10,356 bases of DNA from positions 1 to 10,356 of the forward strand of contig JAJXYA010000432.1 of the NCBI GenBank assembly GCA_021780795.1, in the 5' to 3' direction. Positions 2-10,183 of the stretch are shown piece after piece. This DNA comes from Bacillota bacterium (GTDB lineage Bacteria; Bacillota_A; Clostridia; Clostridiales; Clostridiaceae). The notes beneath the pieces were generated by a model, which was not told the origin of the DNA, ran no database searches, and was given only the letters and a program-made list of their open reading frames with translations. The translations under genes and the position numbers were made by a program. How positions within the stretch are numbered: the first letter of the stretch is position 1; each line of letters begins with the position of its first letter.

Positions 2-355
2 AGAAAAATAAAAGTATTTAAGTTCCATCATATAAAGGAAATCGTTTTAGAGGATGCAATGGTGAAATCCGCTTGTCTAATAATAATATGTTATGTAATA
101 TTATTTTTTATAGGCACTGCACTTGGAACCTATTATGGATATCCAGTGTTGAGTTCAGCTTTTGAAGCTGCGTCAGTTACTGGGAACGTAGGATTATCCA
201 TTGGGGTTACCGCGCCATCAATGCCAACTTTATTAAAGATATATTATATACTTGCAATGTATTTAGGAAGACTAGAATTTATATCTGTGTTTGCATTAAT
301 AGGAGTTACATTTGGAGGCATTAAGAAATTATGGTTAAGACTTTTAAAACAATAA
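2..355 (+). CDS. TrkH/KtrB-family potassium uptake membrane subunit, C-terminal fragment (5' end outside window)
   Basis: The frame is open from base 2 with no stop, so this is the last ~117 residues of a gene that begins before the window; the ATG at 59 is probably internal. The fragment shows a hydrophobic helix (around SACLIIICYVILFF), then FEAASVTGNVGLSIGVT, which matches the fourth pore-loop and selectivity-filter segment of TrkH/KtrB/HKT subunits (G-N-V-G-L-S). It ends with a last transmembrane segment carrying the family-typical M-x-x-GRLE stretch and a basic tail. These proteins conduct K+ (sometimes Na+) through the cytoplasmic membrane, usually with a cytosolic TrkA/KtrA RCK partner that is not visible here. 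The GNVGLS/GRLE form resembles TrkH-like proteins more than classical KtrB, but this is judged by eye. The next gene overlaps its end by 25 nt, suggesting co-transcription. Confidence 0.85.
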   Translation, partial: RKIKVFKFHHIKEIVLEDAMVKSACLIIICYVILFFIGTALGTYYGYPVLSSAFEAASVTGNVGLSIGVTAPSMPTLLKIYYILAMYLGRLEFISVFALIGVTFGGIKKLWLRLLKQ

Positions 356-831
356 TATTAATAGGTATCTTAGTTTTTTCTTTTTCTATAACATGTATGG
401 CGCAGGAATATAGTAATTATAATGAATTAATCGAAAATGGAAAAAAGATTGATAATAGTAAAATTACACTAAAAGGTGAGGCCATTGGGGAATGCATGAA
501 TAGAGGTAAATATTCCTGGGTAAATATCAGTGATGGAAGCACAGCTATGGGAATATGGATTAAAGATGAACAAGCTCGAAGCATAAAAAACTTTGGTAAG
601 TATGGTTATAAGGGAGATATAGTTAAGATAAATGGAACTTTTAATAGGGCCTGCACGGAGCACGGCGGTGATATGGATATCCACGCAATCTCAGTTGAAA
701 TTATAGATGTTGGGGGTAGAGTAACAATTCCTATTAGTAACAGTAAAAAAGTTATAGCAACAATATTAACACTCATCACACTTATTTTAGCTTTTTCATA
801 TGTGAAATTTACTAAAAGCACTTTTAAATAA
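331..831 (+). CDS. Secreted, membrane-anchored OB-fold-like protein of unknown function
   Basis: I cannot name this 166-residue protein. It starts at ATG 331, about 12 nt after a GGAGG (314-318) that lies inside the upstream TrkH gene. Residues 1-24 look like a signal peptide: lysines at 3 and 6, a hydrophobic core, and a plausible signal peptidase I site after CMA. No proper lipobox is seen. Residues ~43-128 alternate beta-like segments and turns (ITLKGEAIGECM, YSWVNISDG, MGIWI, GDIVKINGTFNRACTEHGGDMDIHA), a pattern like small OB-fold nucleic-acid or ligand-binding domains. Residues ~141-158 form a C-terminal transmembrane helix followed by a basic tail, so the domain should face outside and be anchored. 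Overlap with the TrkH gene suggests a linked role in K+ transport or its envelope environment, which is inference only. Confidence 0.8.
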   Translation: MVKTFKTIILIGILVFSFSITCMAQEYSNYNELIENGKKIDNSKITLKGEAIGECMNRGKYSWVNISDGSTAMGIWIKDEQARSIKNFGKYGYKGDIVKINGTFNRACTEHGGDMDIHAISVEIIDVGGRVTIPISNSKKVIATILTLITLILAFSYVKFTKSTFK

Positions 832-946: not shown

Positions 947-1045
947 ATTATATGAGAATATATTCCTTTAAGATATAACAATAAATAAATCTAAACAATA
1001 TGGTAAAACCACAATTATTTATAATTTATGTTCAGATACAGTAGC

Positions 1046-1051
1046 AAGGAG
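1046..1051 (+). promoter_or_regulatory. Ribosome binding site that decides the sensor kinase start (TTG 1061)
   Basis: AAGGAG lies 9 nt before an in-frame TTG at 1061. The in-frame ATG at 1028 has only AT-rich sequence and no purine-rich site before it, and the ATG at 1052 directly abuts the AAGGAG. TTG is therefore the better-supported start, although ATG 1028 cannot be excluded. Confidence 0.6.
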
Positions 1052-1060
1052 ATGGAAAGT

Positions 1061-2692
1061 TTGGAAAAAGTAAAATTTTACGAGAGGTTTTTCAAAAAGT
1101 TCAATGAGTATAAATATAGTGATTATGAAGAAATTAAACCTGAAAGAATGATAATTACCAATGCATTTAAAACTATACTAATTATGAGTTTATCCACTAT
1201 ATTATCTCTGATATTTAGAAAAATTGGATTTCATGAATCAAATGTAATAATAGTATTTATCTTAGGGGTATTATTTGTATCAAGAAGCACTGATGGATAT
1301 GTTTATGGTATTTTGGCGGCCATAATGGGAGTGCTGACATTTAATTTTTTCTTTACTATACCATATTATAGCTTTTCAGCTTATAGAGCGGACTATCCAG
1401 TAACTTTTGCTATTATGTTGATAGCTGCAATTATTACGAGCACTTTAACTTCCAGGATTAAAACACAAGCGAAAATATCTTCTATACGTGAAAAGCGGAT
1501 GCAAGTTTTAAATAAAATTAATAAATCATTGCTTACAGCAAGAAATAAAAACCAAGTAGTTGAATTTTGTGGTGATAACTTAGTTGATATGTTTAACAGA
1601 ACTATTATGCTAACTATAGTAGATGATAAAAACAATTTACAAAAGCCAAGTGTTTACAATTTTGATAATCAATATAGTGGCGATATTTTTGAGTCTGAAA
1701 TAGAGCTAGATGCAATTGAAAAATGTTTTAAAACAGGAAAAATCGTGGGTATTGAAGCTGAAATCTCTATAAATAGTGGGGGGTATTATCATCCAATTAA
1801 AGGGCAAAATAAAATACTTGGGGTTATTGGCATAGCTTGCTTGGAAGAAAATACTTTATCAGAGAATGAAAAGATTCTTTTACAGTCAGTTTCTACACAA
1901 ATTGCTTTAGCTGTTGAAAGAGAGGATTTATATGAAAAGAAGAAGCAGATAAATTTAGAGGCGGAGAGAGAAAGGCTTAGGGGCAATCTTTTAAGATCAA
2001 TTTCACATGATTTAAGAACTCCGCTAACAGGAATATTAGGGTCTGCTTCTACTATTAGTGATAATTATGATATACTTGATAATGATACCAAGAAAGAACT
2101 TCTTGAAATTATTTATGAAGATACAAGCTGGCTTATTCATTCAGTTGAAAATATATTAAGCATGACACGAATAGATGAAGGTAAGCTTGAGATTAAAAAG
2201 GATGTAGAGGTTGTTGAAGAAATTATTGCTGAGTCTATATCAAGGGTTAAAAGATTTTCAGGCAATCATAATATTAAGACTCACTTACCAGAAAGTATGG
2301 TTATATTATTTGTTGACGGGTTATTAATAGAGCAAGTTCTTATTAATTTAATTGATAATGCCATAAAGTATACACAGAGTGATTCTATTATAGAAGTTAA
2401 AGTTATAGAAAAGGAAGACGATGTGATTTTCGAGGTATCAGACAATGGAAAAGGTTTGTCAAAAGAAGATATACCAGCTATATTTGATAGGTTTTATACC
2501 AAGAGTAAGGGTGATTCCCTAGAAAAGCGAGGTATTGGACTAGGATTGGCTATTTGTAAGTCTATTATAGAAGCTCATGGTGGAAATATGGAAGCTTTTA
2601 ATAACTCTTCTGGTGGTGCAACCTTTAGATTTAGTTTACCTGCAAGAAGGAGTGATAAAGATGGATATGAAGTCTTTAGTTTTAATAGTTGA
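1061..2692 (+). CDS. kdpD: Sensor histidine kinase equal to the C-terminal half of KdpD (membrane, GAF, kinase domains)
   Basis: This 543-residue protein (554 if started at ATG 1028) senses conditions at the membrane and should phosphorylate KdpE. Order of domains from the TTG start: a short cytosolic lead; four transmembrane helices at ~38-130 of the DUF4118 type found in KdpD (YGILAAIMGVLTFNFFFTIP); a GAF-like domain at ~150-290; HisKA with the H-box SISHDLRTPLTGI (phospho-accepting His316); and HATPase with the N-box LIDNAIKYT (Asn433), DNGKG (~461-465) and RGIGLGLA (~490-497). All catalytic motifs are present. The ~400-residue KdpD/USP N-terminal region of E. coli KdpD is missing; it is encoded alone at 8398-9555. 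The end overlaps kdpE by 32 nt, so the two are co-translated. It could be called a generic DUF4118 kinase, but the context favours a Kdp role. Confidence 0.92.
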   Translation: MEKVKFYERFFKKFNEYKYSDYEEIKPERMIITNAFKTILIMSLSTILSLIFRKIGFHESNVIIVFILGVLFVSRSTDGYVYGILAAIMGVLTFNFFFTIPYYSFSAYRADYPVTFAIMLIAAIITSTLTSRIKTQAKISSIREKRMQVLNKINKSLLTARNKNQVVEFCGDNLVDMFNRTIMLTIVDDKNNLQKPSVYNFDNQYSGDIFESEIELDAIEKCFKTGKIVGIEAEISINSGGYYHPIKGQNKILGVIGIACLEENTLSENEKILLQSVSTQIALAVEREDLYEKKKQINLEAERERLRGNLLRSISHDLRTPLTGILGSASTISDNYDILDNDTKKELLEIIYEDTSWLIHSVENILSMTRIDEGKLEIKKDVEVVEEIIAESISRVKRFSGNHNIKTHLPESMVILFVDGLLIEQVLINLIDNAIKYTQSDSIIEVKVIEKEDDVIFEVSDNGKGLSKEDIPAIFDRFYTKSKGDSLEKRGIGLGLAICKSIIEAHGGNMEAFNNSSGGATFRFSLPARRSDKDGYEVFSFNS

Positions 2693-3362
2693 AGATGATA
2701 AGCCCATTAGAAAATTTATGCAAGTTTCGCTTGAAGCACAGGGATATAAGTGCATTGAAACTGAATTTGGAAATGAGGCTATAGCACTTATTTTTTCTCA
2801 TAATCCAGATATAATAATTTTAGACTTAGGATTACCTGATATTGATGGACTTAATGTTATTGAGAAAGTAAGGGAGTCTACAAAAGCCAAGATTATAGTT
2901 GTTTCAGCTCGCGGACATGAAAGGGAAAAAGTTGAAGCCTTAGATAAAGGTGCAGATGATTACCTGACAAAGCCGTTTAGTGTAGCAGAGCTTTTGGCTC
3001 GAATTAGGGTGGCGTTTAGACAATTTAATCAAGTTAATAATGCACAAAACAATGTGCAATTAGAATTTAAGGTTAAGGATTTAAAGATAGATTTTGAAAA
3101 ACGCAGAGTTACGATTTTAGATGAAGAAATACATTTAACACCAATGGAGTACAAATTAATTCAGTTAATGTCAAAATATGCAGGACGTGTGTTAACTCAT
3201 AAATATATAATTGATGAAATTTGGGGTAGTTATTTTGAGAGTGATACACAGTCGCTTAGGGTGTTTATGGCTAATATAAGAAGAAAAATAGAAAAGAACC
3301 CTGCTGATCCGGAGTATATCATAACGGAGGTTGGAGTAGGATATCGGTTAGTAGATGAATAA
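2661..3362 (+). CDS. kdpE: KdpE, OmpR/PhoB-family response regulator of the Kdp system
   Basis: This 233-residue transcription factor has a receiver domain (~5-118) followed by a winged-helix DNA-binding domain (~135-232). Receiver residues are intact: acidic pocket E11-D12-D13, phospho-acceptor Asp55 in ILDLGLPDIDG, switch Ser82 in VVSARG, and Lys104 in LTKPF. The C-terminal domain shows LTPMEYKLIQLM, a recognition region with SLRVFMANIRRKIEKNP, and the wing end ITEVGVGYRLVDE. The start is ATG 2661, 8 nt after AAGGAG (2647-2652), inside the end of the kinase gene; an open frame extends further upstream but lacks a site and lies within kinase domain coding. In known Kdp systems phosphorylated KdpE activates the pump operon, and the repeat arrays at 3425 and 9738 are candidate binding sites. 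Confidence 0.95.
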   Translation: MDMKSLVLIVEDDKPIRKFMQVSLEAQGYKCIETEFGNEAIALIFSHNPDIIILDLGLPDIDGLNVIEKVRESTKAKIIVVSARGHEREKVEALDKGADDYLTKPFSVAELLARIRVAFRQFNQVNNAQNNVQLEFKVKDLKIDFEKRRVTILDEEIHLTPMEYKLIQLMSKYAGRVLTHKYIIDEIWGSYFESDTQSLRVFMANIRRKIEKNPADPEYIITEVGVGYRLVDE

Positions 3363-3400: not shown

Positions 3401-3424
3401 ATAAAAAAATAAGATATATTTGTC

Positions 3425-3488
3425 TTAACATAAAATTTATACAGAGATTATCCTCTTTATACTATCTTTATTTTATCTTTGTTAGAAT
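3425..3488 (+). promoter_or_regulatory. Pump operon promoter with a five-hexamer operator, probable KdpE target
   Basis: TTAACA-N5-TTTATA (3425-3441) is followed after 14 nt by TTTATA (3456), TTTATT (3467) and TTTGTT (3478), each 11 nt apart. A -10-like TAGAAT lies at 3483-3488, 10 nt after the TTTATT copy, and there is no good -35 box, as expected of an activator-dependent promoter. OmpR-family proteins bind hexamer direct repeats with 11-bp period; E. coli KdpE and Bacillus PhoP use related T-rich hexamers. Assignment to KdpE is inferred from position, and a PhoP-like regulator is the main alternative. The array recurs at 9738. Confidence 0.6.
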
Positions 3489-3686
3489 GAATGCATAAGG
3501 TGATTAGTCACAATATGTATATTGGTAAAGTAATATGTCCAATTGAAACAGTATAACTTTAAGCTATAGACACAAACTAAAAAACAATAAACTATATTCT
3601 AATGAACATACCGCAAAATATTAATTATTTATGTAAAATATGTAAATAATTAAGAATTTTTAATTTGAAGGAGATGACGTAAATTT
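3489..3686 (+). other. Long 5' leader of the pump operon with an AT-rich hairpin
   Basis: About 190 nt separate the predicted transcription start (near 3495) from the first peptide gene. The clearest structure is at 3621-3653: perfect 11-nt arms (3621-3631 and 3643-3653) that can extend inward by four pairs to a 3-nt loop, followed by a short T run (3657-3661). It could be an attenuator, a processing or stability element, or a chance palindrome in AT-rich DNA. I see no consensus of a known riboswitch, including the c-di-AMP (ydaO) type. A 13-codon frame at 3515-3556 is preceded by AAGGTGAT. Confidence 0.35.
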
Positions 3687-3779
3687 ATGATGGATGTAAT
3701 ATTCATAGCAGTAATAGCGCTTTGTTATTTAGTGCTATTACCGTTTATTAATTGGTGTGAAGCACAAATAAATAAATAA
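3687..3779 (+). CDS. OrfZ-like 30-residue membrane peptide at the head of the kdp operon
   Basis: This tiny gene reads MMDVIFIAVIALCYLVLLPF followed by a short polar tail containing W-C-E (INWCEAQINK). Residues ~4-20 form one transmembrane helix. It begins at ATG 3687, 13 nt after AAGGAG (3668-3673); ATG 3690 is an alternative. It lies 43 nt before kdpF in the same orientation. The Clostridium acetobutylicum kdp operon is reported to begin with two small hydrophobic reading frames, orfZ and orfY, before kdpA; this peptide matches orfZ in position and character, and the next gene matches orfY. Similar short peptides ending in an aromatic- or Cys-Glu-bearing tail precede kdpF in other bacteria as far as I recall. 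Its function is unknown; a role in Kdp complex assembly or stability is a guess from position. Confidence 0.7.
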   Translation: MMDVIFIAVIALCYLVLLPFINWCEAQINK

Positions 3780-3822
3780 AAATCAACATATTACTTAAAG
3801 TTATAATTAAATGGAGGATGCT

Positions 3823-3900
3823 ATGAAATTTTTAATTGTAATCGCGATATTATTATTTTTGTATTTAGGCTATGCATTGTTTAATCCCGAAAAATTTTAA
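3823..3900 (+). CDS. kdpF: KdpF, small stabilising subunit of the Kdp K+ ATPase
   Basis: This 25-residue peptide has one transmembrane helix and the KdpF-typical ending YLGYALFNPEKF. KdpF (29 residues in E. coli) packs against KdpA in the membrane and stabilises the KdpFABC complex. The start ATG 3823 follows GGAGG (3813-3817) by 5 nt, and the stop lies 26 nt before kdpA. It corresponds by position to orfY of the C. acetobutylicum operon. The gene is short enough that automatic annotation often misses it. Confidence 0.9.
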   Translation: MKFLIVIAILLFLYLGYALFNPEKF

Positions 3901-3926
3901 AGAGAATAGATGGAGGAAAGTTATTT

Positions 3927-5603
3927 ATGGACATTTTTCAAATTGCATTAACGCTCATAATTTTTGTATTACTTGTCATCCCAACTGGAAAATATATGTA
4001 TAAAGTTATAAATAATAAGAAGTCTTTTGTAGATCCTGTTATGGATAAGGTAGATAACTTAATATATAAGGTTACAGGAATAACAAAAGAAGAGATGACT
4101 TGGAAGCAATATTCGATTGCTTTCATAGTGTCAAATATGGTTATGGCTTTGACGGCTTATATAGTGCTTAGGATTCAAGGAGTTCATTTCTTAAATCCTA
4201 ATGGTATCAAACCTATGGAGGCTTCACTAAATTTTAATACTATTATTAGTTTTATTACTAATACAAATCTTCAAGACTATAGTGGGGAATGGGGATTATC
4301 ATACTTAAGTCAAATGATAGTTATAACATTTTTTATGTTTACTTCTGCAGCATCAGGATTTGCTGTTGCAGCTGCTTTTATAAGAGGTATTACTGGAAAA
4401 ACTAAAATGTTAGGTAATTTCTTTGTTGATTTAGTAAGAGTTATTACAAGGGTGTTACTTCCGTTTTCAATAATAGTAACAATATTTTTAATGGCGCAAG
4501 GAGTTCCACAGACTTTTTCACCAAATAAAGTTGTAACTACTATAGAAGGGACTAAACAAGTTATTGCACTTGGACCTGTAGCTTCTTTAGAAGCCATTAA
4601 ACATATAGGTACTAATGGTGGTGGTTTCTTCGGAGCAAACTCATCACACCCATTTGAAAACCCTACTCCGCTTACAAATTTAATAGAAATGCTATCTATG
4701 ATGTTGATACCTGGAGCGATAGTTTATTGCTTTGGTTTAATGGTGAAGAATAAAAAGCAAGGATGGGCTATATTTGCAGCAATGTCTATATTGCTTGTAA
4801 TATCTTTAACGGTTTGCTTTAATGCTGAAAAAGCTGGAAATCCTGCAATTGCTAAGCTTAATATAAGTCAAGCTATGGGAAATATGGAGGGAAAAGAAAT
4901 AAGGTTTGGACTTTCCGGTTCAACTCTATTTACAACAATTACGACAGCCTTTACCACAGGTACTGTAAATAATATGCATGACTCATTAACACCTCTTGGC
5001 GGTATGGTTCCTCTGTGGAATATGATGCTTAATGTGGTGTTCGGAGGTAAAGGCGTAGGTTTTATGAATATGATAATGTACGCAGTACTAACAGTATTTT
5101 TATGTGGACTAATGGTTGGAAGAACTCCAGAATTTTTAGGTAAAAAAATTGAGGCAAAGGAAATTAAATTAATATCTTTGGCAATATTAATACATCCTTT
5201 TATAATTCTTGTACCTTCAAGTATAGCGCTACTGACTAAGCAAGGCCTTGCAGGGATAACTAATCCAGGCTTTCATGGGCTAACTCAAGTGCTTTATCAA
5301 TTTACTTCTTCTGCGGCTAATAACGGTTCAGGGTTTGAAGGACTCGCAGATAACACTATGTTTTGGAATGTAAGTACAGGGCTCGTTATGTATGCAGGGA
5401 GATATTTCGCCATGGTTATTCTTTTAGCTGTAGCTGGTTCTTTAGCATCTAAGAAGCTTGTACCAGAATCAAATTCTACATTTAAGACAGATAACACTAT
5501 GTTTACTATAATATTAGTATGTATAGTTTTGATAATTGGAGCGTTAACATTCTTACCAGCTGTAGTACTAGGACCGGTAGCTGAACACTTAATGTTTCAT
5601 TAA
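3927..5603 (+). CDS. kdpA: KdpA, potassium-binding channel subunit of the Kdp ATPase
   Basis: KdpA is the membrane subunit that selects and passes K+ and is a relative of the TrkH/KtrB channels. The 558 residues match the usual full length (557 in E. coli). All four pore-loop filter regions are recognisable: NTNLQDYSGE (112-121), GTNGGGFFGAN (228-238) followed by HPFENPTP, TTGTVNNMHDSLTPLGG (343-359), and TSSAANNGSGFEG (460-472). About ten hydrophobic helices surround them, and the N-terminus begins directly with a helix. The start ATG 3927 follows GGAGGAAAG (3912-3920). No truncation, frameshift or unusual filter residue is seen. It is third in the pump operon, with kdpB 37 nt downstream. 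Confidence 0.98.
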   Translation: MDIFQIALTLIIFVLLVIPTGKYMYKVINNKKSFVDPVMDKVDNLIYKVTGITKEEMTWKQYSIAFIVSNMVMALTAYIVLRIQGVHFLNPNGIKPMEASLNFNTIISFITNTNLQDYSGEWGLSYLSQMIVITFFMFTSAASGFAVAAAFIRGITGKTKMLGNFFVDLVRVITRVLLPFSIIVTIFLMAQGVPQTFSPNKVVTTIEGTKQVIALGPVASLEAIKHIGTNGGGFFGANSSHPFENPTPLTNLIEMLSMMLIPGAIVYCFGLMVKNKKQGWAIFAAMSILLVISLTVCFNAEKAGNPAIAKLNISQAMGNMEGKEIRFGLSGSTLFTTITTAFTTGTVNNMHDSLTPLGGMVPLWNMMLNVVFGGKGVGFMNMIMYAVLTVFLCGLMVGRTPEFLGKKIEAKEIKLISLAILIHPFIILVPSSIALLTKQGLAGITNPGFHGLTQVLYQFTSSAANNGSGFEGLADNTMFWNVSTGLVMYAGRYFAMVILLAVAGSLASKKLVPESNSTFKTDNTMFTIILVCIVLIIGALTFLPAVVLGPVAEHLMFH

Positions 5604-5640
5604 GGCAATAAAATAAAGAAGAGTATAAGGAGTAATATAT

Positions 5641-7704
5641 ATGAGTAATCAAGATGGTAAAAAGAAGTTAATAACTAAAAAGATTTTTAATGATGCAGTT
5701 AAAGATTCTTTTAAAAAGTTAAACCCTAAATTAATGATAAAAAATCCTGTTATGTTTATTGTTGAAATAGGATTTCTTATAACTTTATTTCTTACTTTTG
5801 TTCCTACGGCTTTTGGTGATACAGGTACAAATTTAAGGGGATATAATGGATTAGTTGCTTTTATTCTTTTCATTACAGTTTTATTTGCTAACTTTGCAGA
5901 AGCAGTGGCGGAGGGAAGAGGTAAAGCTCAAGCAGAAAGTTTGAAGAAAACGAAAAAAGATACAACGGCTAAACTTTTGGATAAAGGTGGGAATACAACA
6001 ATTATTAGTGCGTCAGAGCTTAAAAAAGGAGATATAGTTCTTGTTGAAACTGGAGATATCATACCAAATGATGGTGAAATTATTGCGGGACTGGCAGCGG
6101 TAGATGAATCTGCTATAACAGGAGAGTCAGCTCCTGTTATGAAAGAGTCCGGTGGAGATTTTAGCTCCGTTACTGGAGGAACTAAGGTTGTAAGTGATTG
6201 GCTTAAAATTGAAATTACAGCTAGTCCAGGGGAGTCCTTTCTTGATAAAATGATAAGCTTAGTTGAAGGAGCTTCAAGACAAAAAACTCCTAATGAGATG
6301 GCATTAAACATTTTATTAACAGTTTTAACAATGATTTTCCTAATGGTTGTTGTTACTCTACATCCATTAGGCGCTTACGCAGGTGCTAAGATTGCTACGT
6401 CCACATTGATAGCATTGCTTGTATGCTTAATACCAACTACAATAGGTGGTTTATTATCAGCTATAGGAATTGCGGGTATGGATAGAGTTACAAGATTTAA
6501 TGTAATTGCTATGTCAGGTAAAGCAGTTGAAGCTTGTGGAGATGTAGATACCATGATTTTAGATAAGACTGGTACAATAACTTACGGGAATAGACTTGCA
6601 GCTGAATTTACTCCTGTATCTGGATGTGATGAAAATAAATTAATGAAATATGCAGTAATATCTTCGTTAAAGGATGAAACTCCTGAAGGCAGGTCTGTAG
6701 TTGAGCTTGCGAGTAAACTTGGAGTATCTTTAAATGTAGAGGATTATGAAGAAGCGGAATTTATAGAGTTTACTGCTCAAACTAAAATGAGTGGATTAAA
6801 TTTAGGCGATGGAACTATTGTAAGAAAAGGGGCTATTAGTAGTATTATAAAAATGGTACAGGAACTTGGTGGTAAGGTTTCAAAGGATTTAGAAGAAGTT
6901 ACAACAAAAGTTTCTAAGGCAGGGGGAACACCACTAGTGGTTTGTGTAAATAGCGAAATACTTGGAGTTATTTATTTAAAGGATACTGTAAAACCAGGAC
7001 TTGTAGAAAGATTTGAAAGACTAAGACAAATGGGTATAAAAACTATTATGTGTACAGGGGATAATCCACTTACTGCTGCTACAATAGCAAAAGAGGCTGG
7101 GGTAGATGAATTTATTGCAGAGTGTACTCCAGAGGATAAAATTGAAGTTATAAAAAGAGAGCAAGCAGAAGGAAAACTTGTTGCTATGACTGGTGATGGT
7201 ACTAACGATGCTCCAGCACTTGCTCAAGCAGATGTTGGGCTTGCGATGAATAGTGGTACAGTGGCTGCAAAAGAAGCTGCTAATATGGTAGACTTAGATT
7301 CTGATCCTACGAAGATAATCGAAGTAGTAGAAATAGGTAAGCAGTTACTTATAACAAGAGGAGCATTAACTACATTTAGTATAGCAAATGATGTTGCGAA
7401 ATACTTTGCTATAATACCGGCAATATTTACTATAGCTATTCCTACAATGAATGTATTAAATGTAATGAAACTTGCTACGCCTTCAAGTGCAATATTATCA
7501 GCATTAATATTTAATGCAATAATAATACCTCTATTAATTCCAATAGCTATGAGAGGAGTAAAATATAAACCATCAAGTGCTCAAACTCTTCTTTTAAGAA
7601 ATATATTAATTTATGGCGTAGGTGGAATAGTGGTTCCCTTCGTAGGAATCAAAATAATAGATATGATAATATTTCCACTATTAAAAGTGCTTAATGTAGC
7701 ATAA
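5641..7704 (+). CDS. kdpB: KdpB, P-type ATPase catalytic subunit of the Kdp K+ pump
   Basis: KdpB hydrolyses ATP to drive K+ uptake. Its 687 residues (682 in E. coli) show the complete P-type ATPase motif set: actuator loop TGES (160-163), membrane PTTIGG (265-270), phosphorylation motif DKTGT with Asp308, nucleotide-binding FTAQTKMSG (377-385) and KGA (396-398), and hinge TGDGTNDAP (517-525). Ser163 of TGES corresponds to the serine whose phosphorylation inhibits E. coli KdpB at high K+ (Ser162), so that control could operate here. Seven membrane segments are expected: two near 36-56 and 69-88, two near 222-275, and three after ~590. The start ATG 5641 follows AAGGAG (5627-5632) by 8 nt. A short tandem duplication spans its stop codon. 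Confidence 0.98.
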
Positions 7705-7719
7705 GTGCTTATGTAACAT
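7685..7719 (+). repeat. Tandem duplication of about 18 bp across the kdpB stop codon
   Basis: An 18-bp unit (7685-7702) is followed directly by a 17-bp near copy (7703-7719), differing by one missing A and one G/A change. The first copy encodes the last KdpB residues and the second forms the start of the kdpB-kdpC spacer. Slippage is a likely origin. The second half also gives a small CATAAG/CTTATG palindrome (7700-7713). Confidence 0.7.
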
Positions 7720-7740
7720 AATTGAGGAGGATAAGAAACG

Positions 7741-8331
7741 ATGAAAGTATTAAAAAAGTCAATATTAGTTAGTTTGACGTTGATGTTTATATGTGGTTTT
7801 GCATTTCCTACTGTAATGACTGGGATAGGTCAATTATTTTTTAATAATAAAGCTAATGGAAGTATGATAACTGTGAATGGAAAAGAAGTAGGTTCAGAGC
7901 TTTTAGGTCAAAAATTTACAGATGTTCGTTATTTTCATGGAAGAATTTCAGCTGTAGATTATAATACGTACAAGGATGGGGATAAGATTTCAGTATCTTC
8001 TGGGTCTGCAAATCTTGCACCTTCTAATAAGGAGCTAACAGAGAGAATACAAAAGGATTTAGATGCATTTTTGAAGGCTAATCCTGAAGTTAAAAAAGAA
8101 GATATTCCAGCGGATTTTTTAACAAGTTCAGGTTCAGGTCTTGACCCACATATAAGTCCAGAAGCTGCAAAGATACAAATACCAGCTATTTCAAAAGCTA
8201 CAGGCATTAATAAAAGTGATTTAGAACAAATGGTTAAGAATAATACAGAGGAAAGACAACTTGGTGTGTTTGGGAATAGAAGGGTCAATGTGCTGAAACT
8301 TAATATTGAAGTTAATAATAAGCTTCATTAG
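7741..8331 (+). CDS. kdpC: KdpC, periplasm/exterior-facing accessory subunit of the Kdp ATPase
   Basis: KdpC is an essential single-span subunit that binds KdpA and KdpB and is proposed to assist K+ or nucleotide affinity. The 196 residues (190 in E. coli) begin with a basic start and one transmembrane helix (~8-28), followed by an extracytoplasmic domain. Family signatures are clear: FHGRISAVDYN (65-75), PADFLTSSGSGLDPHISPEAA (spanning ~123-143), and a C-terminal FGNRRVNVLKLN. The start ATG 7741 follows GAGGAGG (7724-7730). It is the last gene of the pump operon, 36 nt after kdpB, and is followed by a strong hairpin. It looks intact. Confidence 0.97.
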   Translation: MKVLKKSILVSLTLMFICGFAFPTVMTGIGQLFFNNKANGSMITVNGKEVGSELLGQKFTDVRYFHGRISAVDYNTYKDGDKISVSSGSANLAPSNKELTERIQKDLDAFLKANPEVKKEDIPADFLTSSGSGLDPHISPEAAKIQIPAISKATGINKSDLEQMVKNNTEERQLGVFGNRRVNVLKLNIEVNNKLH

Positions 8332-8338
8332 TAGAGAG

Positions 8339-8390
8339 TTGAAAGTGGAGAGTTAACAAATAAGTTAGCTCTCCACTTTCAATTTTTAAT
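8339..8390 (+). terminator. Strong terminator between convergent kdpC and the KdpD N-terminal gene
   Basis: The arms 8339-8357 and 8364-8382 form a 19-bp stem with a single G-U pair around a 6-nt loop, followed on the plus strand by ATTTTTAATTCTT. The opposite strand has the same stem but no clear T run after it, so it mainly ends the pump transcript and may only partly stop the minus-strand gene. GAGAGTT occurs twice (8334-8340, 8348-8354), which resembles dispersed palindromic repeats I associate with clostridial intergenic regions. Confidence 0.85.
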
Positions 8391-8397
8391 TCTTAAC

Positions 8398-9555
8398 TTA
8401 ATCAAAAGATGCAATATCAGGAATTACGTGTATTTCTATGTCCTTAGCATGGCGTAAAACTTTTGTCACCGAAGAACCTCTAATTGCCATTTGCCAAAAG
8501 GAGCGGTTAGCATGACCAATTATCAGTTGTGTTATATGCTTTTGTGAAGCGAATCTTACTAGCTCTCTAGAAACACTTTTGCCAGATAAGGTTACAGTAT
8601 CAGCACCAAGTTGCTCAGCTAATTTAAAGTGGCTTTCTAAGATATCTAAATCTTTTTGAGAAGGAGTAGATGCTAAAGCATGAGTACAGTTTACTGTGGC
8701 TACAATCCATTCGCATTTATAACGTTTTGCTATTCGTGCGCCTCTTCTTATTAATTTTTTTCCAAAAGGATTAGCACTTACACAAACCATAACCCTTTCG
8801 GCAGTATGCCAGTTTTCTCTAATATTATGTTTTTTCATATACGCTTCTAAATCACTATCAACTTCTTCAGCAATTTGCCTTAAAGTTATTTCTCTTAAGG
8901 CATTTAAATTGCCACCTCTGAAAAAGTTTTTTAATGCTCTTGCAACATTCTCTTTTTTATAGATATTACCTCTTTTTAATCTAGATTGAAGTGCTGAAGG
9001 AGTAATATCAATAACAACGACTTCATCAGCATTTTCAACTATAACATCAGGAATTGTTTCTCTTACTGTCACACCTGTTATTTGTTTTACAACATCATTG
9101 AGACTTTCTAAATGTTGAATGTTTAAGGTAGTAACTACATCTATTCCATGTGCGAGTATTTCTAAAACATCTTCATATCTTTTTTTATTTTTAGAGCCCG
9201 GCGCATTAGTATGTGCTAATTCGTCTATAAGTGCTATTTTAGGTTTACGCTTTAACACCTCATCTACATCAAGTTCTTCTAAAATCATATTATTGTAGTT
9301 TATTTTTTTTCTAGGTAATATTTCAAGAGAGCCTACTTGAGAATTAGTCTCGATTCTTCCGTGGCCTTCAAGATAGCCTATAACAATATCTTGTCTTCTG
9401 CTGAGCATTCTATTAGCTTCATTAAGCATAGAATACGTTTTTCCAACACCGGGAGCATAGCCTAAAAATATTTTCAAATGCCCTTTTTGGGCTTCTTTTT
9501 TTACTGCTCTGAATGCCTCTTCTGGTGTAGTTCGTTTAAAAGAATTATTACTCAT
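8398..9555 (-). CDS. kdpD: Stand-alone N-terminal half of KdpD (ATP-binding KdpD domain plus USP domain)
   Basis: This 385-residue soluble protein equals the cytosolic N-terminal region of KdpD, with no transmembrane helices and no kinase domain. Residues ~24-233 form the KdpD domain, with Walker A GYAPGVGKT (32-40), the family region GYLEGHGR (60-67) and Walker B-like IALIDELAHTNAPGS (107-121). Residues ~254-379 form a universal stress protein domain (VMVCVSANPFGKKLIRRG, then GHANRSFWQMAIRGSS with the nucleotide-binding glycine pattern). It starts at ATG 9555 after AAGGAT and stops 66 nt from kdpC in convergent orientation. E. coli KdpD fragments of about this length are known to affect kdp expression on their own, and truncated KdpD proteins exist in cyanobacteria and Deinococcus. 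It probably modulates the membrane kinase in trans, which is inference. Confidence 0.93.
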   Translation of the reverse strand: MSNNSFKRTTPEEAFRAVKKEAQKGHLKIFLGYAPGVGKTYSMLNEANRMLSRRQDIVIGYLEGHGRIETNSQVGSLEILPRKKINYNNMILEELDVDEVLKRKPKIALIDELAHTNAPGSKNKKRYEDVLEILAHGIDVVTTLNIQHLESLNDVVKQITGVTVRETIPDVIVENADEVVVIDITPSALQSRLKRGNIYKKENVARALKNFFRGGNLNALREITLRQIAEEVDSDLEAYMKKHNIRENWHTAERVMVCVSANPFGKKLIRRGARIAKRYKCEWIVATVNCTHALASTPSQKDLDILESHFKLAEQLGADTVTLSGKSVSRELVRFASQKHITQLIIGHANRSFWQMAIRGSSVTKVLRHAKDIEIHVIPDIASFD

Positions 9556-9625
9556 TTATATCAATCCTTTATTTGTAAGATTTTATTTATTCAAGTAAAA
9601 GGTTATAAATTTTAAACATACATTC

Positions 9626-9655
9626 ATTATACAAGTATTTCATATTTTTTGAAAA
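9626..9655 (-). promoter_or_regulatory. Candidate promoter of the KdpD N-terminal gene
   Basis: On the minus strand a consensus -10 TATAAT (9631-9626) lies 18 nt after TTTTCA (9655-9650), a 4/6 match to the -35 consensus. The start codon is about 70 nt further on. No 11-bp hexamer array is seen in this orientation, suggesting constitutive expression. Confidence 0.5.
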
Positions 9656-9737
9656 TTACACATTTACATTATAGAGAATACAAAAAGCATTGAAATATCA
9701 CAGTTCATGAAAAAAATTAATGTTAGATCATAAAATC

Positions 9738-9812
9738 TTAACATAATCTTTATACGACGCGATTTATCTTTATATTTTGCTAACACCATATTTATAGTGA
9801 TTCTGATAAAAT
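9738..9812 (+). promoter_or_regulatory. TPR gene promoter with the same five-hexamer operator as the kdp pump operon
   Basis: Hexamers TTAACA (9738), TTTATA (9749), TTTATA (9769), CTAACA (9780) and TTTATA (9791) have exactly the spacing of the pump operon array. The 20-nt stretches 9736-9755 and 3423-3442 differ at only two positions. An extended -10, TG-A-TAAAAT (9804-9812), follows the last hexamer by 10 nt; TATAAT (9812-9817) overlaps it. The rest of the 301-nt divergent spacer (9556-9856) holds only the minus-strand promoter and AT-rich sequence. Confidence 0.6.
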
Positions 9813-9856: not shown

Positions 9857-10183
9857 ATGTTAACAAGTGGTAATGAAGAAAGTTCTTTTCAACATAACAT
9901 AAAACAAGCTATTGGTGCAATAAAATCAAAAAAATATGATTTAGCACGAAAGCATTTATATGCAGCAATGATTGAAAATGACCATTCAGCAGAAGTTTAC
10001 AATTTACTAGGAGTTATTTCTGAATATAAAGGTGATGAACTTTTGGCATGTAAACATTATAGAGCGGCATACGTATTTGATCCAACTTGTAAATCAGCAG
10101 ATAAAAATTTAGAAAGATTAACTTCATTTTTTTATAGATTTAATGAAGCTAGTATAGATTATGGAGATAATATGGCAAAATAA
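9857..10183 (+). CDS. Small TPR-repeat protein, probable member of the Kdp regulon
   Basis: This 108-residue cytosolic protein consists of two tetratricopeptide-like helical pairs. TPR1 (~14-43) contains AIGAIKSKKYDLARKHLYAA, and TPR2 (~45-78) contains AEVYNLLGVISEYKGDELLA followed by CKHYRAAYVFDP with the typical closing D-P. A third helix (~79-95, NLERL) and an acidic tail follow. TPRs bind other proteins, so a partner is expected, but nothing shows which. There is no signal peptide or membrane segment. ATG 9857 follows GAGGTGAT (9846-9853). It is transcribed alone, divergently from the KdpD N-terminal gene, from a promoter whose operator matches that of kdp. The C. acetobutylicum kdp locus has an extra K+-regulated gene of its own, kdpX; whether this is its relative I cannot tell without alignment. 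Confidence 0.85.
   Translation: MLTSGNEESSFQHNIKQAIGAIKSKKYDLARKHLYAAMIENDHSAEVYNLLGVISEYKGDELLACKHYRAAYVFDPTCKSADKNLERLTSFFYRFNEASIDYGDNMAK

What the first reader, a model, noticed from the sequence alone, without database searches (positions are those of the whole stretch)
3423..9812. Identical five-hexamer operator architecture upstream of the kdp pump operon and of a TPR gene
Hexamers of TTAACA/TTTATA type start at offsets 0, 11, 31, 42 and 53 in both regions (3425-3483 and 9738-9796). The first 20 nt differ at only two positions, and TCTTTATA recurs around the third hexamer in both. Spacing kept over 31 and 53 nt, where the intervening bases differ, points to selection for a bound regulator on fixed helix faces rather than a recent duplication. 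The natural candidate is KdpE, whose gene lies between. This would extend the regulon beyond the pump and provide a clostridial KdpE operator model. AT-rich DNA makes single hexamers cheap by chance, but not the whole spaced pattern.
Basis: partly seen in the sequence, partly recalled or inferred. Interest (0 to 1): 0.75.

Follow-up and report, generated by a model that had tools for sequence, protein, structure and literature searches.

The report
KdpE operators beyond the kdp pump
Two matching four-box DNA arrays in a Clostridium potassium-uptake locus are very probably binding sites of the potassium regulator KdpE, and one of them drives a small helical-repeat protein gene that goes with this regulator in several clostridial genera, so the potassium response appears to reach beyond the pump.

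Summary
The arrays are real, but share four hexamers, not five (offsets 0, 11, 31, 42): two pairs of 11-bp direct repeats followed by an extended -10 promoter. The kdp 'fifth hexamer' is part of that -10; the TPR one lies in an 11-bp insert absent from two of three close relatives. A matrix trained on kdp arrays of 12 other species recovers both window arrays and 13 of 14 TPR promoters among fetched loci, with no hit away from kdp, kdpD, kimA or TPR genes. In 146 family genomes, strong arrays occur in 45 of 48 with KdpE and 2 of 98 without (p 2e-31), and at kdp in 0 of 25 with KdpA but no KdpE. Targets are kdp, the K+ importer kimA, kdpDE and the TPR gene; five TPR genomes have no KdpA match. 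The TPR domain is also the output domain of response regulators beside kdp or trkAH, and the gene heads trkA-trkA-trkH in three genomes. KdpE control of both genes is well supported by computation; binding is untested and the TPR protein's role in K+ uptake is inferred. A C. acetobutylicum KdpE site is already published, with KdpE said to control kdp only.

The parts
3425..3472 (+). KdpE array upstream of kdpFABC: half-sites 3425-3430, 3436-3441 (distal pair) and 3456-3461, 3467-3472 (proximal pair)
   Evidence: conserved in CS001, CF012 and C. tagluense
9738..9785 (+). KdpE array upstream of the TPR gene: half-sites 9738-9743, 9749-9754, 9769-9774, 9780-9785
9791..9796 (+). possible fifth half-site TTTATA, inside an 11-bp stretch not present in CF012 and C. 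tagluense
9804..9812 (+). extended -10 (TGATAAAAT) of the TPR promoter, TG 24 nt after the start of the 4th half-site
9857..10183 (+). TPR protein gene (108 aa, two TPR hairpins plus cap helix); the inferred KdpE target
2661..3362 (+). kdpE, response regulator, the inferred binder
1028..2692 (+). kdpD kinase half (DUF4118, HisKA, HATPase)
8398..9555 (-). kdpD N-terminal, non-kinase half (KdpD sensor + Usp), divergent from the TPR gene
3823..3900 (+). kdpF
3927..5603 (+). kdpA
5641..7704 (+). kdpB
   Evidence: name by homology with the gene order of kdp loci
7741..8331 (+). kdpC

Best explanation
Both arrays are operators of KdpE. Each holds two KdpE dimer sites (pairs of TTWAYA half-sites 11 bp apart), 31 bp from pair to pair, so all four half-sites lie on about one face of the helix. 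An extended -10 promoter follows, its TG 13 nt after the start of the fourth half-site or one helical turn further (24 nt, as at the window's TPR gene). At low K+, KdpD would phosphorylate KdpE; the proximal dimer would take the place of a -35 element and recruit RNA polymerase while the distal dimer strengthens occupancy. This would switch on kdpFABC and, in step, the TPR gene. The TPR protein is most likely an adaptor of K+ uptake, probably acting on Trk or on the split KdpD, because its domain also serves as the output domain of response regulators beside kdp or trkAH. Shown by computation: the arrays, their conservation, their spacing and their tie to KdpE. Inferred: binding, activation at low K+, and the protein's function. 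The confidence below is for KdpE control of both genes; the adaptor role alone I put at about 0.4.
For: Conservation at both promoters in three close relatives. Held-out matrix trained on 12 kdp arrays outside this species group: of 40 hits over 18 bits in 2.1 Mb (both strands), 12 are training sites, one overlaps a training site, and the other 27 lie at kdp (10), TPR (13), kimA (2) or kdpD (2). Pair distances 31, 32, 33 give 17, 15 and 1 hits over 24 bits; each other distance from 14 to 60 gives 0 to 5. Of 60 arrays distinct in their first 60 nt, 39 have TGnTAnnnT at 13 nt, 10 at 24, 1 at 14, 10 at none of these; background 0.0025 per position. Genome-wide: array in 45 of 48 KdpE genomes, 2 of 98 without, Fisher p 1.7e-31. 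Array at kdp in 0 of 25 KdpA-positive, KdpE-negative genomes. 13 of 14 stand-alone TPR genes carry it; those 13 genomes all have KdpE, and 5 of them have no KdpA match. E. coli half-sites are the same; the best solved match of the window's KdpE is a chain named KdpE. TPR is followed by trkA-trkA-trkH in L074, L078, L084; receiver-TPR regulators lie by kdp or trkAH in L079, L080, L082, L083.
Against: No binding or expression data. Model R1 was built from 30 arrays that include the window's and other TPR and kdp sites and one kimA site, so the kdp and TPR rows are partly circular; one search also used stricter filters and scored only the best 34 candidates of each genome, and I set the cut-off (E 1.1e-3) after seeing the list. 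Three KdpE genomes lack a strong array (G043, G050, G140; G043 has a weak one at E 0.0023); two array genomes lack a KdpE match (G029, and G117, which is 82% complete). Nine of 39 KdpA+KdpE+ genomes have no strong array at kdpF/A: in G061, G083, G091, G120, G132 it lies before kimA, in G017 before kdpD, in G114 and G133 before kimA and before a second kdpE-kdpA locus, and G050 has none. Six of 67 arrays precede genes with no evident K+ link. One stand-alone TPR gene (G140) has no array. The title of the C. acetobutylicum paper says KdpE controls kdp only. TPR function rests on gene neighbourhood.
Confidence: 0.9

Rival explanations
1. PhoP (or another OmpR-family regulator with TTAACA-like direct repeats) binds the arrays, and the kdp link is incidental.
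For: TTAACA resembles the Bacillus PhoP box (recalled, no call); PhoB and PhoP families also use 11-bp direct repeats (recalled).
Against: Arrays follow KdpE presence (45 of 48 against 2 of 98), are absent from the kdp promoters of all 25 genomes with KdpA but no KdpE match, and mostly lie before K+ transporters, kdpDE or TPR; no phosphate gene was recognised among the downstream genes read.
Confidence: 0.04
2. The array at 9738-9785 serves the divergent kdpD N-terminal gene, and the TPR gene is a bystander.
For: In the window and three relatives the array lies between the two genes; self-regulation of kdpD would be natural.
Against: The extended -10 follows on the TPR side in the orientation of the array in the window and its three relatives; I did not look for the mirror arrangement. 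In L071-L075, L077 and L078 TPR carries the array and no kdpD N-terminal gene was found in the fetched stretch. The kdpD N-terminal gene has its own conserved TATAAT on the minus strand at 9631-9626, far from the array.
Confidence: 0.05
3. The TPR protein has no part in K+ transport; it is a general adaptor that happens to sit under KdpE control.
For: The fold is generic (designed TPRs among the best matches, none under E 0.001); no functional data; only 3 of 14 stand-alone genes were seen heading trkA-trkA-trkH.
Against: All 14 genomes with a stand-alone TPR gene have KdpE; it persists with kdpDE in five genomes without a KdpA match, and shares its domain with receiver-TPR regulators beside kdp or trkAH.
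Confidence: 0.4
4. The two arrays are a recent duplication and carry no regulatory meaning.
For: The first 20 nt are nearly identical.
Against: Bases between boxes differ while boxes and spacing hold in four species, and other genera have the same spacing with different fill.
Confidence: 0.01

Closest known systems
E. coli KdpE site upstream of kdpFABC (TTTATA-N5-TTTACA; PMC3264566, abstract and passages read)
   Same: Same half-sites, same 11-bp period. If the start site lies 7 nt after the -10 (assumed), the distal pair falls at about -70 to -54, where the E. coli footprint (-72 to -50) lies.
   Different: Here a second pair lies 31-33 bp downstream over the -35 region, and the promoter mostly has an extended -10; the passages I read describe one pair in E. 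coli.
C. acetobutylicum KdpE site (Behrens and Duerre 2000, seen only as a citation and in remarks in PMC5401905)
   Same: Clostridial KdpE with a site said in PMC5401905 to be similar to the T-rich one of E. coli.
   Different: That paper's title says KdpE controls only the kdp operon; here the same operator lies before the TPR gene, kimA and kdpDE in other species. Its text was not seen, so its box number is unknown to me.
PhoB/PhoP tandem direct-repeat boxes (recalled)
   Same: OmpR-family activator on 11-bp direct repeats covering the -35 region.
   Different: Other half-site sequence and no link to KdpE.
c-di-AMP riboswitch control of kdp and kimA in Bacillus thuringiensis (PMC6488665, abstract and passages read)
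   Same: The same two K+ importers are co-regulated.
   Different: Here by KdpE operators on DNA; no riboswitch was found in the window.

Membership tests
KdpE operator | Two TTWAYA half-sites as direct repeats, 5 bp apart | tested here: met
KdpE operator | Present upstream of kdpFABC in relatives that have KdpE and absent where KdpE is missing | tested here: met
   30 of 39 against 0 of 25
KdpE operator | Cognate KdpE encoded in the genome | tested here: met
   the NCBIfam KdpE model is the best of 100 matches but below its curated cut-off (217 of 325 bits)
KdpE operator | Bound by KdpE in vitro and needed for K+-dependent expression | not testable with these tools
   needs EMSA, footprint, reporter
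PhoP box | Upstream of phosphate-starvation genes | tested here: not met
   of 67 arrays, 45 were assigned by position and 22 by reading the downstream ORF; none was recognised as a phosphate gene, though six of the read genes were named by eye or not at all
TPR protein family | Helical hairpin repeats | tested here: met
   (best model pLDDT 86, two hairpins plus cap); Pfam TPR_2 E 8e-4, under its cut-off
KdpD (full sensor kinase) | Sensor and kinase in one protein | tested here: not met
   split into 8398-9555 (non-kinase) and 1028-2692 (kinase)

The most novel reading that the evidence does not exclude
The TPR protein is an undescribed regulator of K+ uptake in clostridia that couples two-component signalling directly to transporters: in some lineages it is made on demand through KdpE, in others it is fused to a receiver domain and switched by a dedicated histidine kinase, and its target is Trk or the kinase-less KdpD rather than DNA. 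In lineages that lost the Kdp pump it is what keeps KdpDE in the genome.
Probability: 0.35. Interest if true: 0.8.

Novelty: new variant of a known kind. Interest (0 to 1): 0.62.

Why it matters
It sets against 'KdpE controls only kdp' (the C. acetobutylicum title) a testable clostridial K+ regulon (kdp, kimA, kdpDE, TPR), gives a precise operator and promoter geometry that can be scanned in other genomes, and points to a small protein family of unknown function whose control and nearest relatives lie in K+ homeostasis. Genomes without a KdpA match that keep kdpDE plus the TPR gene offer a clean way to find out what KdpDE does besides making the pump.

Tried and rejected
Five-box model: rejected, see observation check. 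Riboswitch control: no Rfam match at gathering score in the window; in 14 fetched loci, 11 of them among the 15 kdp loci without linked KdpE, the only matches were an M-box, a T-box and a glmS, none within 4 kb upstream of kdpA. A leader insert of about 160 nt in the window's kdp transcript: no second copy in the held genome and no unusual RNA fold. Structure comparison of the TPR model: only generic TPR folds, no E-value under 0.001.

Literature: 9 searches. KdpE with tetratricopeptide: 5 papers, listing only, none on this by title. 'KdpE regulon': 0. KdpE with kimA: 15 listed, no title on KdpE control of kimA; passages of PMC6488665 read. Response regulator, TPR, output domain, potassium: 3 listed, passages of PMC3333781 read. 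Tetratricopeptide, potassium uptake, response regulator, TrkA: 2 listed. KdpE, Clostridium, binding site: 27 found, 20 listed; of these only PMC5401905 and passages elsewhere named here were opened. So I found no print record of this regulon or of the TPR protein, in an open-access library that lacks most subscription journals.
Full report
What is there. The window is a Clostridium K+-uptake locus: end of trkH, a 166-aa ORF without a Pfam match, kdpD kinase half, kdpE, a 29-codon ORF, kdpF, kdpA, kdpB, kdpC, then on the minus strand a KdpD N-terminal half without kinase, and on the plus strand a 108-codon TPR gene. The held genome of the window is 52% complete. Its nearest named relatives with the same locus are Clostridium sp. 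CS001 (L002), sp. CF012 (L023) and C. tagluense (L031), kdpA 89-90% identical.

The observation. Four hexamers per site fit TTWAYA at offsets 0, 11, 31, 42, scoring 23 of 24 at both; such scores are not reached in 40 simulations of the window nor in 2000 simulations with intergenic composition. That estimate is after the fact, since box and spacing came from the same two sites. The fifth hexamer is not shared. At kdp, offset 53 is TTTGTT, and its TG is the TG of an extended -10 (TGTTAGAAT). At TPR it lies in an 11-bp stretch present in the window but absent from CF012 and C. tagluense; CS001 has the 11 bp with a hexamer that fits at 4 of 6 positions. In CF012 and C. tagluense both promoters have one geometry: boxes 0, 11, 31, 42 and TG at 55. 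In the window and CS001 the TPR -10 is moved by 11 bp, one helical turn.

Held-out test. I trained an 11-column box matrix on the kdp arrays of 12 species outside this group (picked by eye) and scanned 56 sequences (the window and 55 loci), 2.1 Mb on two strands. 40 hits exceed 18 bits. 12 are training sites and one overlaps a training site. The other 27 lie upstream of kdpF/A (10), TPR homologues (13), a kimA-like permease (L019 and L020; the ORF was read in L020 only) and kdpD or a small gene before it (L009, L025). None lies elsewhere; but these loci were fetched around kdp or TPR, so this is not a genome-wide false-positive rate. Wrong spacings are a second control: pair distances 31, 32, 33 give 17, 15, 1 hits over 24 bits; each other distance from 14 to 60 gives 0 to 5, and the small peaks at 21 and 42-43 are what box-to-box harmonics of the same arrays would give.

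Promoter geometry. Over all loci then held, 60 arrays distinct in their first 60 nt exceed 24 bits. In 39 the motif TGnTAnnnT starts exactly 13 nt after the start of the fourth half-site, in 10 exactly 24 nt, in 1 at 14, in 10 at none of these; by eye several of the 10 show near-matches at the same place and two are shifted hits on another array. Background is 0.0025 per position. Near-copies from sister species are among the 60. Taking the start site 7 nt after the -10 (assumed), the distal pair falls at about -70 to -54, where E. coli KdpE was footprinted (-72 to -50, PMC3264566, passages read), and the proximal pair covers about -39 to -23, where a -35 element would be.

Which regulator. 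A profile of 30 arrays was searched in 146 genomes of the family (stricter filters, 34 candidates scored a genome): 67 matches at E <= 1.1e-3 in 47 genomes, a cut-off set after seeing the list; below it most matches are partial, though one or two weak ones (G043, G144:C3) lie near kdpE and may be real. By position, 30 precede kdpF/A, 13 precede TPR, 24 are others. Of those 24, 14 precede a kimA-like gene, recognised by likeness to the L020 protein, which matches the solved KimA at E 1e-148; in 8 of the 14, kdpE lies about 2 to 5 kb downstream on the same strand. Two (G114, G133) lie about 3 kb upstream of kdpE and 4 kb upstream of kdpA on one strand (not read). One precedes kdpD (L129), one a small exported-looking ORF followed by kdpD (L134). 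Six precede other genes: a MarR-like gene, an aspartokinase-like gene, a 126-aa ORF, a CBS protein close to kdp, a 70-aa ORF and a 144-aa ORF in L128. KdpE (E <= 1e-60) is in 48 of 146 genomes. Array and KdpE coincide in 45 genomes, KdpE alone in 3, array alone in 2, neither in 96; p = 1.7e-31, without correction for kinship. Among 39 genomes with KdpA and KdpE, 30 have the array at kdpF/A; among 25 with KdpA only, none. The smaller set agrees: of 41 kdp loci, an array over 18 bits lies upstream of kdpA in 18 of 26 with KdpE linked (12 of these 18 are the training loci) and 1 of 15 without; the 8 misses have KdpE only 45-54% identical. KdpE is thus the binder by inference, and PhoP is unlikely.

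The TPR gene. In the 146 genomes, 26 had a match to the TPR protein. I set aside eight genomes with weak matches inside longer ORFs, and two fragments in genomes that also have a full match. Fourteen genomes hold stand-alone genes and four hold fusions to a receiver domain. 13 of the 14 stand-alone genes have the array 17-70 bp before the match; G140 has none. All 14 genomes have KdpE. Five (G024, G037, G049, G135, G141) have no KdpA match, four of which are rated at least 99% complete and the fifth 97%. Gene order varies: beside kdpD-N (L045-L047), after kdpE (L071-L074, L081), before kdpD (L077), divergent from kdpA with an array for each direction (L076). In L074, L078 and L084 the gene is followed by two trkA-like genes and trkH (TrkA domains confirmed for both in L078 and the first in L074, the others named by likeness).

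The domain. Receiver-TPR regulators with a partner kinase lie beside kdp in L079, L080, L082 and directly before trkA-trkA-trkH in L083. Their TPR part groups with the stand-alone proteins (support 99/98), apart from a second receiver-TPR family found in seven kdp loci without linked KdpE and in four loci of the tagluense group. The predicted structure is two TPR hairpins and a cap helix, pLDDT 86 in the best of five models, 67-71 in the other four. This suggests a protein-binding output acting on transporters or KdpD; no call tests that.

What was known. The E. coli site and half-site logic are established. A KdpE site in C. acetobutylicum has been published by Behrens and Duerre (2000), whose title says KdpE controls only kdp; I saw it only as a citation in PMC5401905. 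New here, to the extent of nine searches of an open-access library: the two-pair array with fixed extended -10, its presence at kimA, kdpDE and TPR, and the TPR family's tie to K+ genes.

Limits. Genomes are related, so counts are not independent events. The profile includes window, TPR, kdp and one kimA array. Nothing was measured at the bench.

Noticed in passing
L079:8013-8690, L080:8204-8875, L082:7598-8260, L083:8529-9227: Response regulators whose output domain is the same TPR module, with a partner histidine kinase, beside kdp or trkAH: a second two-component link to K+ uptake, for which two literature searches listed nothing by title.
   Followed up: partly
L004, L010, L016, L022, L035, L036, L042; L023, L031, L072, L073: A second family of short receiver-TPR regulators, in seven kdp loci without linked KdpE and four loci of the tagluense group. 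The seven kdp loci have neither the array nor a c-di-AMP riboswitch at gathering score, so their control is unknown.
   Followed up: partly
L020:7447-9487, L086-L088, L118-L126, L130, L132: kimA-like K+ importer genes carrying the same KdpE array in 14 of 146 genomes; in 8 of the 14, kdpE lies a few kb downstream on the same strand.
   Followed up: partly
window 8398-9555: The KdpD half here is closer (64-72%) to KdpD-like proteins of nine kdp loci without linked KdpE than to the KdpD N-termini of KdpE-linked Clostridium loci outside its group (about 40%): a mixed locus.
   Followed up: partly
window 9857-10183: The TPR protein of the window ends about 29 residues before most homologues and lacks their conserved C-terminal tail; the 97% identical copy in the held genome is equally short.
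   Followed up: no
window 3506-3668: About 160 nt in the kdp leader that the three close relatives lack; single copy in the held genome, no notable fold.
   Followed up: yes
window 3690-3779: A 29-codon ORF upstream of kdpF conserved in L002, L017, L019-L021, L023, L031, L033 and L076 (38-79% identity); no family match.
   Followed up: no
window 331-831: A 166-aa protein with a signal-like N-terminus (by eye) that follows trkH in the tagluense group and in L078; no Pfam match.
   Followed up: no
L132: The kimA-like reading frame behind the array in G104 is interrupted early (151 codons).
   Followed up: no
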